From: Deltaproteobacteria bacterium
Lineage (GTDB): Bacteria; Desulfobacterota; Syntrophorhabdia; Syntrophorhabdales; Syntrophorhabdaceae
Assembly (NCBI GenBank): GCA_022711595.1
Contig: JAKLET010000033.1
Location: 1-35,796, forward strand
Direction of reading: 5' to 3'
Length of the DNA stretch: 35,796 bases
Positions within the stretch are counted from its first letter, which is position 1. Every line of letters starts with the position of its first letter. A program made the translations under genes and the position numbers. Below, one piece after another: positions 1 through 8,398 of the stretch. A model generated the notes under the pieces. It worked only from the letters and a program-made list of their open reading frames with translations, did not search any database and was not told where the DNA came from.

Positions 1-35
1 TCCTGCAGAACTTTCTCGATCTCACCATCACCTGA
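1..35 (+). CDS. 3' tail of an unidentified gene (partial)
   Basis: Only the final ten codons and the TGA stop are visible, so no family can be assigned. The second copy of the repeat carries more upstream sequence in the same frame (about 99-188), reading like an ordinary C-terminus with an Ala/Pro linker and then an amphipathic, Leu/Gln-rich helix. The upstream gene presumably had this C-terminus before the duplication. Confidence 0.35.
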   Translation, partial: LQNFLDLTIT

Positions 36-98
36 GCGTATCACCGGACGGCTCGCATAAGCGAGCAAGAGGGGGAGGATCCGCGGGCTTTGCCCGTG

Positions 99-363: not shown

Positions 364-1386
364 TTAGTTCTTTTTCAGGAAATCTACCGCGAACTTCACT
401 GCCTCGTCGCCAGGAAGCTTTTTGGATTTCAATGTTTTTACCTGGTCATCAAGAAGAGGTTTGACAGCCTTGGCCCACTTGGCGTCTTCTGCGGCGCTGA
501 GCGTGATGACCTGGTTGCCTCTCTTTTTCGTGAAGGCATAGCCTTCCTTGTCGATCTCATCCCATACCTTGCCCTGTTTCACTACCCATTCTTTGCTGAC
601 ATCTTCGAAGATCTTCTGGACATCGGGAGGAAGGGAATTCCACTTCGCCTTGTTCATGACTACAAACATGGCGGTCGTGTATGCGGAACCGAAGTTCTGC
701 GTCGTTGACTTTACAACTTCGCCCCACTTCCAGCCCTGGAGCGATTCAATAGGCGCCATGGCGCCGTCGGCAACGCCGGTACGGAGCGCATCGTAGGTTT
801 CCGGCATGGTCGTTCCAACGGGGGCCGCGCCGAGTGCCTGGACAACCTTTGCGGCAAGACCGGTGGCACGGATCTTCATGCCCTTCATATCCTCGAGCTT
901 GTTGACAGGTTTTTTGCTGTGAAGGATGCCGGGGCCGTGCGCGTGAAGCCAGAGCACCTTGACATCGGCAAGCTCTTTCGGTTGGAACTTGGCATAAAAG
1001 GCATTGACAAGATTCGTTGCCGCAACGCCGGATTTATATCCAAGAGGAAGGTCCAGGGTCTCCATCATGGGGAATTTACCCCTTGTGTAAGCGAAGCAGC
1101 TCTCGCCGATATCCGCTATACCCTTAACTACGTTGTCATAGGTCTGTGCCGCAGGTGTCAGTGTGCCGCCAGGGAAATAAGTGATCTTGACCTTGCCGGC
1201 CGCTCTCTTTTCGACCTCTTTACACCACTGCTGCGCTATGATGCTGTTCTTGTGCGGTGCCGGGAAGAAGTTCGAGTAATTCAGCGTTATGACCTTCTGG
1301 GCAGAAGCCATGACGGGAAAAAAGGCGAGACAAGTTGCTGCAAAGAAAACCAAAAGTAAACACTTTACCCCGAAAACCCGTTTCAT
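364..1386 (-). CDS. TRAP transporter solute-binding protein, DctP family
   Basis: A periplasmic receptor that captures an organic acid and hands it to a DctQM-type permease driven by an ion gradient. The 340-residue length is normal for the family. Residues 1-29 form a signal peptide (basic start, hydrophobic core, ASA cleavage site). The KIRATG segment around Arg173 matches the position of the conserved carboxylate-binding arginine, and PETYDALRTGVADG (195-208) is the usual family segment. The start is fixed by an AGGAGG just upstream. It has its own promoter and terminator and diverges from the hydroxylase operon; the likely partner genes dctQ and dctM lie 5 kb away on the same strand. The ligand is unknown. 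Confidence 0.93.
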   Translation of the reverse strand: MKRVFGVKCLLLVFFAATCLAFFPVMASAQKVITLNYSNFFPAPHKNSIIAQQWCKEVEKRAAGKVKITYFPGGTLTPAAQTYDNVVKGIADIGESCFAYTRGKFPMMETLDLPLGYKSGVAATNLVNAFYAKFQPKELADVKVLWLHAHGPGILHSKKPVNKLEDMKGMKIRATGLAAKVVQALGAAPVGTTMPETYDALRTGVADGAMAPIESLQGWKWGEVVKSTTQNFGSAYTTAMFVVMNKAKWNSLPPDVQKIFEDVSKEWVVKQGKVWDEIDKEGYAFTKKRGNQVITLSAAEDAKWAKAVKPLLDDQVKTLKSKKLPGDEAVKFAVDFLKKN

Positions 1387-1566: not shown

Positions 1567-1625
1567 TTGACTTTTGGACAATTTTCGTAAATAATTTTGA
1601 CATATGTGTCTCACCATTGTATGAT
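1567..1625 (+). promoter_or_regulatory. Tandem sigma-70-type promoters of the hydroxylase operon
   Basis: The proximal promoter is TTGACA (1597-1602), 17 bp, TATGAT (1620-1625), one mismatch from consensus; transcription should start near 1632, 20 bp before the first gene. A second set, TTGACT (1567-1572), 17 bp, AATAAT (1590-1595), lies 30 bp upstream. Confidence 0.75.
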
Positions 1626-1651: not shown

Positions 1652-1927
1652 ATGGCCAAGCATAAAATAGTATGTCCCATCTCCGGAACCGCCTGTGTGG
1701 AATGCGCCATCTACCGCGGCAGGCATTATTACCTGTGTTATTCCTCATCTTACAAGGGAAGCTCCTTCGACCCCGAACGGGTAAAGGAATTAAAAGCGAC
1801 GGAGCGCAAGGAAGACCCCGGCAAGACCTTCGGGATGCCCGAGAAGATAGATGTCGGTTCCCAGTGTATACATAATGTTGAGGAATACGGCATAGAGAAA
1901 GAATTTGCGGCCCTGAAACAGCATTAA
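1652..1927 (+). CDS. Small Cys-rich protein, first gene of hydroxylase operon
   Basis: A 91-residue protein with no assignable function. Cysteines at 8, 15, 18 and 29 form a C-x6-C-x2-C-x10-C cluster in a basic, Tyr-rich segment (around YRGRHYYLC), suggesting a metal or Fe-S site; the remainder is charged with one more Cys near 72. There is no signal peptide or membrane segment, so it should be cytoplasmic. AAGAGGTG lies 8 bp before the ATG. It is the promoter-proximal gene and lies 55 bp before the FAD subunit, so it should be co-transcribed. A role as assembly or electron-transfer partner is a guess from position. Confidence 0.75.
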   Translation: MAKHKIVCPISGTACVECAIYRGRHYYLCYSSSYKGSSFDPERVKELKATERKEDPGKTFGMPEKIDVGSQCIHNVEEYGIEKEFAALKQH

Positions 1928-1982
1928 GCTAATTTGAAAGAAAAAGAACCAGTAGAAAAGAACCAGTAGAAAGGAGAGGATC

Positions 1983-2855
1983 ATGATCAACGATTTTCAT
2001 TACCTGAAACCTGCAAGCCTGAAAGAAGCGCTTGCAATGTATGCGCAGCATGATGATTGCAAGGTCATCTGCGGCGGGCAGTCCTTGTTGATCGTCATGA
2101 GGCAGGGCATGCTTGCTCCCGAATACCTCCTTGACATCAAGCACGTGAAAGAGCTCAGCTACATCAAGTTCGATGATAAGGACGGCCTCAGGATCGGCGC
2201 AACAACAACGCATCGCGAGATCGAGAAATCCGACATCATTGCAAAGAAATACCCCGTTCTCGTAGCAATGGAACAGAAACTTGCCTCCATCCAGACCCGC
2301 AACTGGGGTACGATTGGCGGAAATCTCGCCCATGCCGATCCCGCGGGCGACCCCGCACCCGTGCTTATGGCACTCAAGGCGAACATCAAGTTCGGTAACG
2401 AAAAAGGCGACAACACCATGCCGCTTGATGAGTTCTTCGTGGACTATTTCGAAACGAAGATGGATCACGGCGACCTCGTTCTCGAAGTTCATGTGCCGGC
2501 TCCGGAGCCTAAATTCGGCTGTGCATATCAGAAATTCAACCTCCTTGACAGTGACATGGGTATCGTCGCGGCGGCCGCGGCGGTTACGCTTAATGCTGAC
2601 GGCACCTGTAAGGAAGCCCGGATCGTTCTCGGGAACGCCGGACCGACACCCATGAGGGTGACAAAGGCCGAAGATCTTTTGAAAGGCAAAAAGCTCGACG
2701 ACAAGCTGTTCGCCGAGGCCGGCCAGATCGCTTCCGAGGAAGCACAGCCCGTTGCAGACATCCACGCGTCTGAGGAACACAGAAGACACGTTCTGGGCGT
2801 TCTCACCAAGAGGATGCTGAAAAAGGCCTTTGAACAAGCCCAGAAAGCTGCTTAA
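1983..2855 (+). CDS. Molybdenum hydroxylase, FAD-binding medium subunit
   Basis: A CoxM/XdhB-type flavoprotein that passes electrons between the 2Fe-2S subunit and an external carrier. The 290 residues show the two FAD pyrophosphate-binding loops, CGGQSLL (30-36) and [14 protein letters not shown] (110-123). It lacks the Cys-containing insertion that carries a 4Fe-4S cluster in the medium subunit of 4-hydroxybenzoyl-CoA reductase, so it resembles the CO/xanthine dehydrogenase form. AAGGAGAGG precedes the ATG. It lies 11 bp before the 2Fe-2S subunit. The medium-small-large order is common in this family. Confidence 0.93.
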
Positions 2856-2866
2856 GGAGGAGAGAT

Positions 2867-3352
2867 ATGGAAAAGCATATATTGCGTTTAAAAGTTAACG
2901 GCGACGAATACGAAGTTTACATACATCCGAAAACATTGCTTGCGGAAGTGATCAGGGATCACCTCGGTCTCACAGGCACAAAGAGGGGCTGCGATACGGT
3001 ATCGTGCGGCGCCTGCACCGTGAATGTTGAAGGCAAATCAGTGAAATCCTGCTCCGTCCTCGCAATTCAGTGTGAGGGTCTGGAGGTCACGACAGTTGAA
3101 GGACTCGAAGTAAACGGCAAACTGAGCCAGATCCAGAGAGCCTTCCTTGATAACGGTTCCTACCAGTGCGGTTTCTGTACGCCCGGAATGCTCATGTCCT
3201 CAACAGCCTTCCTCAGCGAACTTGAAGGAAAGAAGCCCTCCGAGGAAGAGATACGTGAAAGCATTGAGGGCAATGTATGCCGATGCACCGGTTACAATAG
3301 CATTGTAAGAGCCATTGACGCCGTTGCCCAGGGCAAATACAAGGAGGAGTGA
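2867..3352 (+). CDS. Molybdenum hydroxylase, 2Fe-2S small subunit
   Basis: A 161-residue electron-transfer subunit with both expected [2Fe-2S] sites. The N-terminal plant-ferredoxin-like cluster uses Cys42, 47, 50 and 62. The C-terminal helical-domain cluster uses Cys101 and 104 (QCGFCTPGM) with Cys138 and 140 (CRCTGY). All eight ligands are present and the length is typical. An AAGGAGGAGAG ribosome site precedes the ATG. The stop lies one base before the large-subunit start, implying translational coupling. Confidence 0.96.
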
Positions 3353-3353
3353 T

Positions 3354-5639
3354 ATGAGTCACGCAAAATATTCTGTCATAAACACACCAGTGCACAATAT
3401 AGACGGCATTGCGAAGGTAACCGGCCGGGCAACCTACACCTTTGACGTAACACTTCCGGGAATGCTTCACGGGAAGATCCTCCGCAGCCCCCACCCCCAC
3501 GCGAAGATCATCAACATTGACGCCACCCGGGCAATGGAACTCTCCGGCGTGAAGATAGTCGTCACCGGCAAGGACACCCTCGGCATAAAGCAGGGCATCT
3601 GGAGGCGCTACGAAGAGCTTTGCGACGAGCAGGTTCTCCCCCTTGAGAAGGTTCGCTACATCGGCGAGCCCGTCGCGGCCGTTGCCGCAATAACGGAAGA
3701 GATCGCGGAAGCGGCTCTCGACCTCATCGATGTGGAATATGAAGTTCTCCCCGCTGTTTACGAACCGCTGGAGGCGATCAAGAAAGAGGCCCCCACGATC
3801 CATGAAGGTGTGGAGAGGAACGTCAACGTAACCCGCCATATCGAGTGGGGCGATGTTGACGAGGCATTCGAAGAAGCAGACTATATTCGGGAAGACTGGT
3901 TCAAATGCTCCGGCCAGGCGCATATGTGCATGGAGACCCGCGCCGCCGTTTCGAGTTTCACGCCGGAAGGCAAGCTCACCTGCTGGGCGTCCACCCAGTC
4001 TGCCTACTATACACAGGGCCTCCTTGCGGGTGTTCTGGGTCTTCGCGAAGGCGATGTGCGTGTTCTGGCGCCTTACGTAGGCGGCGGCTTCGGCGGCAAG
4101 TTCGAGCTTGATGCGGCCATGTTCTGCAGCGCAGTTATGTCCATGAAGCTTCATAAACCGGTCAAGGTCATATTCACTCGCGAGGAAGACTTTATCGCCT
4201 CTAAGAGGCGGACCCCCATGTTCTACTACGTCAGGACAGGCATGAAGAAAGACGGCACCTTCTGTGCCCGCGAGTCACGCATGTTCTCCAATGGCGGCGC
4301 ATACACAGGTATGGGCGCGACCGCCCTTTACCTGTCGGGGTTTTTCCACTCATTCCCGTACAAATGGAGGGGTTACCGCTATGACGGTTACAGGGTATAC
4401 ACGAACACCCTGCCCTCCACATCGATGCGCGGCTTCGGTGCCCCCCAGGCCATGTTCTGCTCCGAGCAGCAGATCGACTGGATGTGCGCCGATCTCGGTC
4501 TCGATCCCTTTGAGGTAAGAAGAAAGAACGGCCACACCGAGGGATATGAGGTACCCGGCCAGGCATTCATAGCGAGTTGTGGACTCGAGCAGTGCATCAA
4601 TGAGATTGAGAAATGGGTAAAAGCAAAAGGCAAAATGCCCCCAAACCGGGGCATCGGCATCTCCTCCTGCGGCTTCATGTCAGGCGGTATCTTTAACTGG
4701 TTCGATTCACCCTATTCTTTCTCTTCGGCGGTTGTCACCATCAATGTCGATGGCACCGTGGAACTCCATGTCGGCTGCCAGGACATCGGCCAGGGTTCCA
4801 ACACGACGATGGCAATTATTGCCGCGGAGACCCTTGGCGTAAAGATGGAGGATATCAAGGTTCACTCTGGCGACACAACGCATTGCCCGGCAGACCTTGG
4901 TGCCTGGGGATCGAGACAGACCCTCATGGCCGGCAATGCAGTAAAGATGGCCTGTGAAGATGCCAAGAAACAGCTCCTTGAGTTTGCATACGCAGAGATG
5001 GGGATCAACATCGTTTACGATCTCGACATCAAGGACAGGTGGGTTCACATCGTTGCCCGTCCCGAAAGGGGCCTCGACTATTTTGAACTGGTAAAGAAGG
5101 TGCTCCGTGCAAAGGACGGCCAGCGAGTTGTCGGCAGGGGCTATTATACACCGCACAGAAAAGGCATGATATCCCCCGCATACAGCTACATGATGCAGGC
5201 GGTTGACGCCGAGATCGATCCCGAAACGGGCAGGATCAAGATCCATGAGGTTATGACTGCCCACGACTGCGGCCAGCCCATCAACCCGCTGGGCCTTATC
5301 GGCCAGCTTGAGGGCGCAGCTTCTATGGCACTCGGCTACGCATACCTGGAAGACATGCCCTTCGAGGACGGCAAGCTCATGAACCCAAATCTTGTCGACT
5401 ACAAGGTCATAAAGGCACCGGAGATGCCCCCAACAGGCATTATCGAAATCGATACCTATGAACCGGAAGGACCGTACGGTGCGAAAGAGGCCGGCGAAGG
5501 ACTCACGAACCCGACGGCAGCGGCCCTGGGCAATGCAGTATACAACGCACTGGGCATACAGATGAAAGAGCTCCCCATCACCCCCGAGAGGATCCTTAAG
5601 GCCCTGAGGGAGAAGAAAGAACAGGAAGCCCAGAAATAG
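3354..5639 (+). CDS. Molybdenum hydroxylase, molybdopterin-binding large subunit
   Basis: The catalytic subunit of a xanthine-dehydrogenase-family enzyme, 761 residues. Visible motifs are GGGFGGK (about 243-249) and QDIGQGS (about 476-482), both at the Mo-cofactor, SMRGFGAPQ (about 357-365), and KEAGEG (711-716), whose Glu715 aligns with the catalytic glutamate. The AYRCSFR loop of aerobic CO dehydrogenase is absent, so it is not that enzyme. The ATG at 3354 is preferred over one 39 bases upstream because AAGGAGG lies 6 bp before it and family homology begins there. Size and motifs fit purine, nicotinate-type or aryl-CoA enzymes; the substrate is undetermined. Confidence 0.93.
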   Translation: MSHAKYSVINTPVHNIDGIAKVTGRATYTFDVTLPGMLHGKILRSPHPHAKIINIDATRAMELSGVKIVVTGKDTLGIKQGIWRRYEELCDEQVLPLEKVRYIGEPVAAVAAITEEIAEAALDLIDVEYEVLPAVYEPLEAIKKEAPTIHEGVERNVNVTRHIEWGDVDEAFEEADYIREDWFKCSGQAHMCMETRAAVSSFTPEGKLTCWASTQSAYYTQGLLAGVLGLREGDVRVLAPYVGGGFGGKFELDAAMFCSAVMSMKLHKPVKVIFTREEDFIASKRRTPMFYYVRTGMKKDGTFCARESRMFSNGGAYTGMGATALYLSGFFHSFPYKWRGYRYDGYRVYTNTLPSTSMRGFGAPQAMFCSEQQIDWMCADLGLDPFEVRRKNGHTEGYEVPGQAFIASCGLEQCINEIEKWVKAKGKMPPNRGIGISSCGFMSGGIFNWFDSPYSFSSAVVTINVDGTVELHVGCQDIGQGSNTTMAIIAAETLGVKMEDIKVHSGDTTHCPADLGAWGSRQTLMAGNAVKMACEDAKKQLLEFAYAEMGINIVYDLDIKDRWVHIVARPERGLDYFELVKKVLRAKDGQRVVGRGYYTPHRKGMISPAYSYMMQAVDAEIDPETGRIKIHEVMTAHDCGQPINPLGLIGQLEGAASMALGYAYLEDMPFEDGKLMNPNLVDYKVIKAPEMPPTGIIEIDTYEPEGPYGAKEAGEGLTNPTAAALGNAVYNALGIQMKELPITPERILKALREKKEQEAQK

Positions 5640-5668
5640 TTAAGAGATAAATAAGGAGGAGGTATACC

Positions 5669-5884
5669 GTGAGCTTTAAATGTCCAGCATGTAAAAAAGA
5701 ATGGCCTAACAGCAAACAGGTTGCGCGCCACATGTTCGGTACCGGTGACAAGGCGCACAGGGCATGGATCGAATCACAGGGTCACTCGTACATCGAGCTT
5801 CTTCTCGCGCAGACCACCGAAGCGGGCAACAAGAGCTATGAGATCCTGTCGGACCTGATAGAAAAGGCACAGGACAAGCTGTAA
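5669..5884 (+). CDS. Small C2H2 zinc-finger-like protein in hydroxylase operon
   Basis: A 71-residue protein starting at GTG with a strong AAGGAGGAGGT site. The N-terminal third has a C-x2-C-x11-H-x7-H arrangement (Cys5, Cys8, His20, His28) like a classical zinc finger; the rest is predicted helical and acidic. There is no membrane segment. It lies 29 bp after the large subunit and 51 bp before the CoxG-like gene, so it is in the operon. C2H2-type fingers are uncommon in bacteria. It could be a metal-binding assembly factor or a DNA/RNA-binding regulator; neither can be chosen from sequence. Confidence 0.8.
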   Translation: MSFKCPACKKEWPNSKQVARHMFGTGDKAHRAWIESQGHSYIELLLAQTTEAGNKSYEILSDLIEKAQDKL

Positions 5885-5935
5885 GAATAAAAAAGGCCGC
5901 CGCAAGGGGCCGGATACTTAACACAAGGAGGTACC

Positions 5936-6388
5936 ATGATCATAGAGGGTGGTTTTACCTTAAAGGCACCAATAGACAAACTCTTCGATTTCCTGCTGAA
6001 ACCGGACACGATCCTTACCTGCCTTCCGGGCGCGGAATCAGTGAACATTATCGATGACACGTCATACGAATGCATCGTGAAGCAAAAAGTGGGACCCATC
6101 AAGGCCAGGCTGAAATTTGTCAACAAATTGACCGTCGTAGAGAAGCCGACCCACATGGAGATCGAAGGCGAGGGCGAGGACATGACCAAGCTCGGCCATT
6201 TCAAGAACAAGACCGTCGTTGATTTAAAAGACAAAGGCAACGGAGATGTTGAGGTCAGCTACAAGACTGACGTGAACATAGTCGGCAAGCTCGCCATGTT
6301 CGGGGACAGGATCATGAGGGCGAAGGCGAAGGACACGGAAAAGGAATTCACCAAGAACCTTCAGGAGAAATTGAAAACCATCGCTTAA
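5936..6388 (+). CDS. CoxG-like SRPBCC-fold protein
   Basis: A 150-residue member of the CO dehydrogenase subunit G family (START/SRPBCC fold), recognised by its start (FTLKAPIDKLFDFLLKPD), the CLPGAE segment and the GKLAMFGDRIM region near the C-terminus. In aerobic CO-oxidisers CoxG helps attach or mature the Mo-enzyme at the membrane; relatives occur beside many Mo-hydroxylases of other specificity. This copy lacks the long membrane-anchoring C-terminal tail of some CoxG proteins. AAGGAGGTACC precedes the ATG. It is the last gene of the operon, followed by a strong terminator. Confidence 0.85.
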   Translation: MIIEGGFTLKAPIDKLFDFLLKPDTILTCLPGAESVNIIDDTSYECIVKQKVGPIKARLKFVNKLTVVEKPTHMEIEGEGEDMTKLGHFKNKTVVDLKDKGNGDVEVSYKTDVNIVGKLAMFGDRIMRAKAKDTEKEFTKNLQEKLKTIA

Positions 6389-6410
6389 AAAGAAGAAATT
6401 AAAGGTTAAA

Positions 6411-6450
6411 ACAGGGTTCCGGCTTACCGCCGGAACCCTGTTCTTATTTT
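6411..6450 (+). terminator. Intrinsic terminator of the hydroxylase operon
   Basis: A perfect 13-bp stem (6411-6423 with 6429-6441, loop TTACC) is followed by a T-rich tract to 6450. It begins 22 bp after the CoxG-like stop. Confidence 0.92.
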
Positions 6451-6612: not shown

Positions 6613-7920
6613 TTAGCCGGGCATCAGCCAGCCGGGCAGCCAGGTGGAAAGAGCGGGGAAAAGAAAGACAAGGATGCCGCCGAGGATGATACTGATGAGG
6701 AAGGGGTAGACGCCTTTGTAAATGACGCCGAAGGGTGTCTTGGTGATCTGCTTGACGACGAAGACGCATATGGCCATCGGCGGGAGAACGACACCGAGCA
6801 TAACGGTGATGCCGATGAGGATGCCGAACCACATAGGGTTGTAACCAAGCTTGAGGATGGCGGGATAGAAAATCGGTGTTGCAAGGATCATGAACGCGAG
6901 GTCATCGATGAAAGAACCGCCGATGAGGTAGATGAGGGCGATGAAGACGACGATGACCCAGGAAGGCATGTTGAGGCTGACGATCCAGTCCGCTGCGACC
7001 ATGGGGATGGTCGTAACGGCGATGAAGTGGCCGAGGACGGTGGAACCGGCGATGAGCATCAAGACCATGGTGGCCGTTCTGACCGCTTCCGCGACGGACT
7101 TGATGTAGCCCTTGATATTGAGATCGCGCATGGCAAAGGTCATGACGAGGACCAGGAAGGTGCCCACGCTGCCTGCCTCTGTGGGGGTGAAGACGCCGCC
7201 GAGGATGCCGCCGATGACGAGACAGAAGATGACAAGCACCATGAGGACTTCCGGGATGGTCTTAAACCGCTGGCCCCAGGTTGCTTTGGGGCTCTTCGGG
7301 CCGATCGCGGGATTCATCTTGCACCACCCGTAGATGACCACAACAAAGAGGGCGGCGATGATGAGCCCGGGAATGATGCCGGCGAGGAAGAGGCGGCCGA
7401 TCGACTGGTCGGTGATAATACCATAGAGGATCAGGGTAACACTTGGCGGAAGGAGTATGCCCAGGGTGCCGACGGTGGCGACGATGCCTGTGGACAACCT
7501 CTTGTCATACCCGTACCTGTCCATCTCGGGAACGGCCACGCTGGCAAAGGTCGCCGAGGTGGCGGGCGAAGAACCGCAGATCGCCTTGAATACCGTTGCG
7601 CCGCCGACGGTCGCCATGGCAAGGCCGCCGGGGATGTGGCCGAGGAACTTGTGCGCCGCGTCAAAAAGGCGCTTGGCAATGCCCGAGTTGAATGCCACCT
7701 GTCCCATGAGGACGAAGAGGGGGATGACGGTAAAGCTGTACGAGTTGAGAACATCGTACATGTCCTTCGCCAGCAGATTGAATGCCGCATCAAAAGAGAT
7801 GAGGTACCCGAAACCGAGAAAACCCATGAGGACCATGGCGAAACCCAGTTCGATACCGGTGAGGAAAAGAAAAAGTACGATTAGCAGTCCGGCGATTCCA
7901 ACAGTAATAGGATCACTCAT
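6613..7920 (-). CDS. dctM: TRAP transporter large permease subunit, DctM family
   Basis: The 435-residue integral membrane channel of a TRAP transporter, with about a dozen hydrophobic segments. Typical family stretches include the region around residues 80-100 (GGLAMATVGGATVFKAICGS, then SPATSATFASVAVPEM) and LGILLPPSVTLILYG. The ATG at 7920 is chosen over an in-frame start 30 bases earlier because GGAGG lies just upstream and the N-terminus then matches the family. It overlaps dctQ by 8 bp, so translation is coupled. The cognate binding protein is probably the DctP gene at 364-1386, now separated by the hydroxylase operon. Confidence 0.93.
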   Translation of the reverse strand: MSDPITVGIAGLLIVLFLFLTGIELGFAMVLMGFLGFGYLISFDAAFNLLAKDMYDVLNSYSFTVIPLFVLMGQVAFNSGIAKRLFDAAHKFLGHIPGGLAMATVGGATVFKAICGSSPATSATFASVAVPEMDRYGYDKRLSTGIVATVGTLGILLPPSVTLILYGIITDQSIGRLFLAGIIPGLIIAALFVVVIYGWCKMNPAIGPKSPKATWGQRFKTIPEVLMVLVIFCLVIGGILGGVFTPTEAGSVGTFLVLVMTFAMRDLNIKGYIKSVAEAVRTATMVLMLIAGSTVLGHFIAVTTIPMVAADWIVSLNMPSWVIVVFIALIYLIGGSFIDDLAFMILATPIFYPAILKLGYNPMWFGILIGITVMLGVVLPPMAICVFVVKQITKTPFGVIYKGVYPFLISIILGGILVFLFPALSTWLPGWLMPG

Positions 7921-8398
7921 ATTGACCTCCGAAGATCTTGAAGATGTCACATATCAGGACGAGGCACTGGATAAAGCAGCAGACCGCCATCCCGTATGCG
8001 ACGGGATAGAAGGGGATCTGCCGTGTCAGCGATACCTCGCCCGATACATAGAGGTCGTACCCGTACTTGATCAAATTGTGACCGATGAGGTAAAAAAGAC
8101 CGATACTTACAAGGCGAGTAATGATGTTGATGATGCCTTGCCCCACTTTGGGGAATTTTACAACGAAAAAATCGACGAATATGTGGCCCCTCATCCATGA
8201 GGTGATGGGAAGGGCGAAACCGATGGCTACCGCCCCGCCTAAACCGACTATCTCAAAGGTTCCGATAATGGGCCTGTCGAAGAAATAGCGCAGGAAAACG
8301 TCACATACCGTGAGCAACATGATAAAGGTGAGTGATGCTCCAGCAACGACGCTCATCAATCTGCTGAGCTTTTCAGCAATCCAAAGTATGGCTCCCAT
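7913..8398 (-). CDS. dctQ: TRAP transporter small permease subunit, DctQ family
   Basis: A 161-residue membrane protein with four hydrophobic segments, of normal DctQ size. The motif FLRYFFDRPIIGTFEIVGL and the following GFALPITSWMRGHIFVD fit the conserved DctQ core. It forms the transmembrane complex with DctM. The ATG has a strong GGAGGAG site. It is the first gene of the minus-strand pair, with its own promoter upstream. Confidence 0.92.
   Translation of the reverse strand: MGAILWIAEKLSRLMSVVAGASLTFIMLLTVCDVFLRYFFDRPIIGTFEIVGLGGAVAIGFALPITSWMRGHIFVDFFVVKFPKVGQGIINIITRLVSIGLFYLIGHNLIKYGYDLYVSGEVSLTRQIPFYPVAYGMAVCCFIQCLVLICDIFKIFGGQYE

What the first reader, a model, noticed from the sequence alone, without database searches (positions are those of the whole stretch)
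1652..6388. Six-gene Mo-hydroxylase operon with two small Cys/His metal-site proteins
The three catalytic subunits are standard, but the operon also carries a 91-residue Cys-cluster protein at its head and a 71-residue C2H2-finger-like protein plus a CoxG-like protein at its tail. Usual maturation partners (CoxD/E/F, MocA, XdhC-like) are absent. The small proteins may be dedicated assembly, electron-transfer or regulatory parts of an undescribed variant.
Basis: partly seen in the sequence, partly recalled or inferred. Interest (0 to 1): 0.72.

Follow-up and report, generated by a model that had tools for sequence, protein, structure and literature searches.

The report
Molybdenum enzyme operon with dedicated partners
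A gene set for a molybdenum enzyme in anaerobic, aromatic-degrading bacteria carries two small metal-site proteins, one of which was found only beside this enzyme in every genome checked, so it is probably an undescribed dedicated partner of the enzyme.

Summary
The six-gene operon is real and conserved. Order head–FAD–FeS–Mo–tail–CoxG, with a promoter-like site 27 nt before the head gene and a strong terminator after CoxG. In the window's class 42 of 46 genomes carry it, 37 complete on one contig and 5 cut by contig ends. The 71-aa tail protein is exclusive: all 43 loci found in 84,980 species genomes, across several phyla, lie directly after this Mo subunit. In 395 genomes of the phylum, tail carriers are exactly the 20 genomes with a Mo subunit at least 77% identical; the tree supports a single origin. 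The head protein is operon-linked too, often overlapping the FAD gene by 4 nt, but belongs to a wider family with unlinked members. The enzyme is a xanthine-oxidase-family Mo-hydroxylase, nearest 4-hydroxybenzoyl-CoA reductase, without that enzyme's extra [4Fe-4S] domain. Missing maturation genes are not special: XdhC and a MocA-like gene are elsewhere in the genome. Most likely: a variant Mo-hydroxylase with a dedicated zinc-finger subunit or assembly factor (tail), a Cys4 metal protein (head) and CoxG. Substrate and reaction direction unknown.

The parts
1597..1625 (+). promoter-like site TTGACA-17-TATGAT before the operon
   Evidence: consensus scan, 11 of 12; consensus only, 5 found against 4.1 expected in shuffles
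1652..1927 (+). head: 91-aa Cys4/His protein (C8-x6-C15-x2-C18-x6-H25-x3-C29)
   Evidence: ORF; no Pfam or NCBIfam match; C8, C15, C18, H25 invariant and C29 nearly so in 34 operon-linked homologues
1983..2855 (+). FAD subunit (CoxM type, 290 aa), without the [4Fe-4S] loop of HcrB
   Evidence: PF00941 and PF03450; alignments to solved structures
2867..3352 (+). [2Fe-2S] subunit (161 aa)
   Evidence: PF00111 and PF01799
3354..5639 (+). molybdenum-cofactor subunit (761 aa), nearest solved relative 4-hydroxybenzoyl-CoA reductase alpha
   Evidence: PF01315, PF02738, PF20256; 1RM6_A 449 bits against 273 for the next
5669..5884 (+). tail: 71-aa C2H2-finger protein (C5-x2-C8-x12-H21-x8-H30 plus helices), exclusive to this enzyme
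   Evidence: ORF, GTG start; invariant ligands; AF2 pLDDT 96; 43 of 43 loci next to Mo
5936..6388 (+). CoxG-like SRPBCC protein (150 aa)
   Evidence: PF06240 80.7 bits, cut-off 22.2
6410..6442 (+). intrinsic terminator after the operon
   Evidence: 14-bp stem, 9 G-C pairs; MFE -28.3 kcal/mol, z -5.5

Best explanation
The operon encodes one enzyme system: a three-subunit molybdenum hydroxylase of the xanthine oxidase family (Mo, FAD, 2x[2Fe-2S]) in a clade near 4-hydroxybenzoyl-CoA reductase, acting on a catabolic, probably aromatic, substrate. Substrate and direction (hydroxylation or dehydroxylation) are not known. The tail is a dedicated zinc-finger partner of the Mo subunit, either a small fourth subunit or an assembly factor, gained once in the ancestor of this clade. 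The head is a small Cys4 metal-site protein made together with the FAD subunit and probably helps its assembly or electron exchange. CoxG probably links the enzyme to the membrane or quinone. MCD synthesis and sulfuration come from XdhC and a MocA-like protein encoded elsewhere. Shown: gene order, conservation, exclusivity of the tail, single origin, family membership of the subunits. Inferred: metal binding, complex formation, all functions of head and tail, substrate class.
For: Same six genes in the same order in 42 of 46 genomes of the class and in Aminicenantes, Desulfomonile and others. Tail next to Mo in 43 of 43 loci; 20 tail genomes = the 20 genomes with Mo at least 77% identical, of 395; tail-bearing Mo subunits are one side of a branch, 100/100. 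Head/FAD overlap of 4 nt in many genomes, Mo/tail overlap in L153, L154, L164. Terminator only after CoxG. Closest solved relative 4-HBCR alpha. XdhC and a MocA-like gene in trans. Aromatic context: BamA directly downstream in L152 (569 bits, cut-off 464), same gene cut by the contig end in L154; BamA over cut-off in 15 of 20 tail genomes against 78 of 375 others.
Against: Tail never shown to bind the enzyme or zinc; no biochemistry. L163 and L166 carry Mo-tail but no CoxG downstream, and L163 has no head upstream, so the six parts are not inseparable. BamA is lacking in some operon carriers (G002, G003) and present in G001, which lacks the operon, and the BamA association is confounded by kinship. 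The order-mates G002 and G003 have the operon beside a tungsten aldehyde oxidoreductase and indolepyruvate-oxidoreductase-like genes instead.
Confidence: 0.62

Rival explanations
1. The tail (and perhaps the head) is a DNA- or RNA-binding regulator of the operon rather than part of the enzyme.
For: C2H2-like fold; best sequence matches in the PDB are DNA-binding zinc fingers. Head relatives are fused to a receiver-like domain in a sister lineage (19.8 bits, cut-off 30.2).
Against: Regulators are not expected to sit inside the operon, between Mo and CoxG, in several phyla, with Mo/tail overlaps, and to be found in no other context. Conserved columns run through the helical part.
Confidence: 0.15
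2. It is simply a 4-hydroxybenzoyl-CoA reductase of these phenol and benzoate degraders, and head and tail are minor extras.
For: 1RM6_A is by far the best solved match; TIGR03194 is the best NCBIfam match of the Mo subunit; benzoyl-CoA pathway gene nearby in Aminicenantes.
Against: All three TIGR equivalog cut-offs missed (677/994, 132/404, 166/258). No HcrB [4Fe-4S] loop. The same genome has another paralogue with an HcrB-like Cys loop (L190 15517-16461) and two whose Mo subunits score higher for TIGR03194 (890 and 911).
Confidence: 0.15
3. A CO-dehydrogenase-like oxidising hydroxylase that feeds electrons into the quinone pool through CoxG, with an unrelated small substrate.
For: CoxM-type FAD subunit and CoxG in the operon; CoxG proteins anchor enzymes to the membrane and bind menaquinone (PMC11962113, PMC13240472).
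Against: CODH equivalogs far below cut-off (271/991). The CoxG here is 150 aa in nearly all genomes and Pfam's domain spans 5-146, so there is no room for a C-terminal anchor.
Confidence: 0.2

Closest known systems
4-hydroxybenzoyl-CoA reductase (HcrABC, 1RM6)
   Same: Closest solved relative of the Mo subunit over its whole length (449 bits); same three-subunit plan.
   Different: Misses all three NCBIfam cut-offs; FAD subunit lacks the [4Fe-4S] loop; head, tail and CoxG in the operon.
Aerobic CO dehydrogenase (CoxMSL with CoxG)
   Same: CoxM-type FAD subunit and a CoxG-family protein.
   Different: Mo subunit far below the CoxL cut-off; no CoxD/E/F; short CoxG.
Urolithin C dehydroxylase Ucdh (Enterocloster; PMC12771579)
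   Same: Xanthine-oxidase-family three-subunit enzyme whose closest characterised relative is also 4-HBCR; XdhC encoded in a separate cluster.
   Different: No head or tail protein is mentioned in the passages read; sequences not compared here.
DUF5810 (haloarchaeal) and N-terminal domain of SSO2700 (4LQX)
   Same: Weak relatives of the tail: DUF5810 in 25 of 41 members at E <= 0.01; fold match Z 8.0, rmsd 2.2 over 57 residues, 21% identity.
   Different: The tail is below the DUF5810 cut-off (20.3/26.9); no Mo-hydroxylase link is known to me for either.

Membership tests
Xanthine oxidase family (molybdenum hydroxylase) | Mo subunit with Ald_Xan_dh_C and MoCoBD_1/2 domains | tested here: met
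   All far over cut-off; full-length alignment to 1RM6_A
Xanthine oxidase family (molybdenum hydroxylase) | two [2Fe-2S] domains and a FAD_binding_5 subunit | tested here: met
   PF00111 (23.2/21), PF01799, PF00941, PF03450 over cut-off
4-hydroxybenzoyl-CoA reductase | equivalog scores TIGR03193/03194/03195 | tested here: not met
   165.7/257.8, 677.3/994.55 and 131.9/404.55 bits
4-hydroxybenzoyl-CoA reductase | extra [4Fe-4S] loop in the FAD subunit | tested here: not met
   1RM6_B matches only in two stretches and the insertion is absent; no Cys loop in the sequence, unlike paralogue L190b
4-hydroxybenzoyl-CoA reductase | reduction of 4-hydroxybenzoyl-CoA | not testable with these tools
   needs enzyme assay
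Aerobic CO dehydrogenase | CoxL equivalog score | tested here: not met
   TIGR02416 270.9/991.15; NF040766 344.6/950
CoxG family (PF06240) | Pfam cut-off | tested here: met
   80.7 bits, cut-off 22.2
C2H2 zinc finger (tail) | two Cys and two His ligands, invariant | tested here: met
   C5, C8, H21, H30 invariant in 21 and in 41 homologues
C2H2 zinc finger (tail) | Pfam zf-C2H2 cut-off | tested here: not met
   zf-C2H2_4 16.7/27
C2H2 zinc finger (tail) | zinc binding | not testable with these tools
   needs metal analysis
DUF5810 (tail) | Pfam cut-off | tested here: not met
   20.3/26.9; 25 of 41 homologues match at E <= 0.01

The most novel reading that the evidence does not exclude
The head protein is a detached low-potential Fe-S module that takes the place of the [4Fe-4S] domain of 4-hydroxybenzoyl-CoA reductase, and the tail is a fourth structural subunit, so that this is a new five-part aromatic dehydroxylase able to run on the energy-poor electrons of syntrophs. 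In favour: translational coupling of head to the FAD gene, the lack of the HcrB loop, and the fourth Cys (C29), which is kept in Mo-linked heads and missing at that spacing in the distant unlinked ones.
Probability: 0.14. Interest if true: 0.75.

Novelty: new variant of a known kind. Interest (0 to 1): 0.5.

Why it matters
Xanthine-oxidase-family enzymes are thought of as three subunits plus general maturation factors. A small zinc-finger protein that accompanies one clade without exception, in several phyla, points to an unrecognised subunit or assembly step, and gives a ready marker for a conserved enzyme of uncultured syntrophic aromatic degraders whose substrate is unknown.

Tried and rejected
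Filing it as 4-hydroxybenzoyl-CoA reductase or CO dehydrogenase: rejected on curated cut-offs and the missing HcrB loop. 'No maturation partners': rejected, they are in trans. Head structure: AF2 pLDDT 67, not usable. No solved structure matches the head profile (best E 5.4). Foldseek for the tail gave no match under E 0.001; the VIA second look gave 4LQX at Z 8.0, which may mean only a common arrangement. BamA as a strict partner: rejected, present in 15 of 20 carriers only and confounded by kinship. Neighbouring transporters and the FAD_binding_4/CCG trio vary between genera, so they do not fix the substrate. Literature searches found no description of these two small proteins with a Mo-hydroxylase; the library holds open-access papers only.

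Full report
Observation. The middle three are a FAD subunit, a double [2Fe-2S] subunit and a molybdenum-cofactor subunit of the xanthine oxidase family; the last is CoxG; all are over Pfam's cut-offs. The 91-aa head protein matches no Pfam or NCBIfam family, and the 71-aa tail protein only sub-threshold C2H2 and DUF5810 models. A promoter-like site (11 of 12) precedes the head gene, though such sites are about as common in shuffled sequence, and a strong terminator hairpin follows CoxG. This fits one transcript.

Conservation. The window lies in a genome of a class with 46 searchable genomes; named relatives of its genus are Syntrophorhabdus MAGs. Head was found in 42 genomes and tail in 41. 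Reading the regions gave the order head-FAD-FeS-Mo-tail-CoxG in 42 of 46 genomes: 37 complete, 5 cut by contig ends (the G031 head was found by the profile). Four genomes (G001, G019, G025, G045) lack it. Head and FAD overlap by 4 nt in many genomes, also in Aminicenantes; Mo and tail overlap in L153, L154 and L164.

The tail is exclusive. A scan of one genome per species for 84,980 species gave 43 loci, and in all 43 the tail directly follows this Mo subunit; about 14 lie outside the class (Aminicenantes, Desulfomonile, Syntrophobacteraceae, an Acidobacteria and a Bacteroidetes MAG). In 395 genomes drawn from the phylum, 20 have the tail, and these are the same 20 whose best Mo subunit is at least 77% identical to the window's; the next Mo subunits (54-57%) have none. 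In a tree of 51 Mo subunits the 35 tail-bearing ones are one side of a branch with full support. The scan used conserved peptides, so very divergent tails could be missed. C5, C8, H21 and H30 are invariant. The predicted structure is confident (pLDDT 96): a finger followed by helices, with one possible fold relative, the N-terminal domain of SSO2700 (4LQX, Z 8.0).

The head is linked but not exclusive. All 20 tail carriers of the phylum sample have it upstream of FAD. Operon-linked heads share C-x6-C-x2-C-x6-H-x3-C, L155 being an exception where the last Cys is shifted. Relatives lie elsewhere: in a cluster with XdhC, a NifX-like protein and DUF5320, near other cofactor genes, and, in the sister Mo clade, fused to a receiver-like domain and sometimes within about 1.4 kb of the Mo gene on the other strand. 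Distant unlinked members lack the fourth Cys at that spacing. Its structure could not be predicted well.

The enzyme. The Mo subunit's best solved match is 4-hydroxybenzoyl-CoA reductase alpha (449 bits; next 273), but all three subunits miss that enzyme's curated cut-offs, and the FAD subunit is CoxM-like without the [4Fe-4S] loop. The genome has eight Mo-hydroxylases; one other carries an HcrB-like Cys loop and two score higher for HcrA. So this is a separate clade near that enzyme, not a member by the tests made here.

Maturation. XdhC homologues lie on C16 and C40 and a MocA-like gene on C8 of the same genome. Their absence from the operon is ordinary when one genome holds eight such enzymes.

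Context. In Aminicenantes L152 the gene after CoxG is 6-oxocyclohex-1-ene-1-carbonyl-CoA hydrolase (BamA), over cut-off; L154 shows its start before the contig ends. BamA is over cut-off in 15 of 20 tail carriers against 78 of 375 others (Fisher p 8e-7, kinship not corrected). Other neighbours are TRAP and branched-chain-type transporters, an acyl-CoA ligase, a trio of two FAD_binding_4 proteins with a CCG Fe-S protein, and in G002/G003 an aldehyde ferredoxin oxidoreductase. This suggests aromatic catabolism but does not name a substrate.

Mechanism. Best reading: a Mo-hydroxylase variant whose Mo subunit has a dedicated zinc-finger partner (tail) and whose FAD subunit is made with a small metal protein (head), while CoxG links it to membrane or quinone, as shown for CoxG homologues elsewhere (PMC11962113, PMC13240472). 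The CoxG here is only 150 aa, so an anchor at its C-terminus is unlikely. Gene facts are shown; metal binding, interaction and function are inferred.

Verdict. Observation confirmed, interpretation partly supported, new variant of a known kind. The main finding is the strict, single-origin link between an undescribed small protein and one Mo-hydroxylase clade.

Noticed in passing
window 1-88 and 154-241: Two identical 88-nt direct repeats at the contig start, spaced 153 nt; perhaps an assembly-end repeat.
   Followed up: partly
L262 926-1576, L263 6620-7249, L265 7494-8123, L267 1410-2000, L269, L270: Head domain fused to a receiver-like domain (PF00072 19.8 bits, below cut-off) in the sister Mo clade's genomes.
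   Followed up: partly
L124, L126, L127, L128: Proteins of 144-163 aa with a three-Cys head domain and a shared C-terminal part (three end in FMFLAGG or FMILAGG), in contexts without Mo-hydroxylases; no Pfam match for L126.
   Followed up: no
L087, L091, L095, L096, L098, L104, L106; also L275: A trio of two FAD_binding_4 proteins and a CCG Fe-S protein, whole or in part, beside the operon; a similar FAD_binding_4 protein lies beside a more distant Mo-hydroxylase in L275. Possible electron-transfer partner.
   Followed up: partly
L114, L116 (and L117, L119): Head paralogues in a cluster with NifX-like, DUF5320, XdhC or DUF364 proteins; in the window's genome the matching XdhC cluster (L252) has no head gene.
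   Followed up: partly
window 364-1386 and 6613-8398: TRAP transporter parts (DctP, DctM, DctQ) on the other strand on both sides of the operon, shared by several genera.
   Followed up: partly
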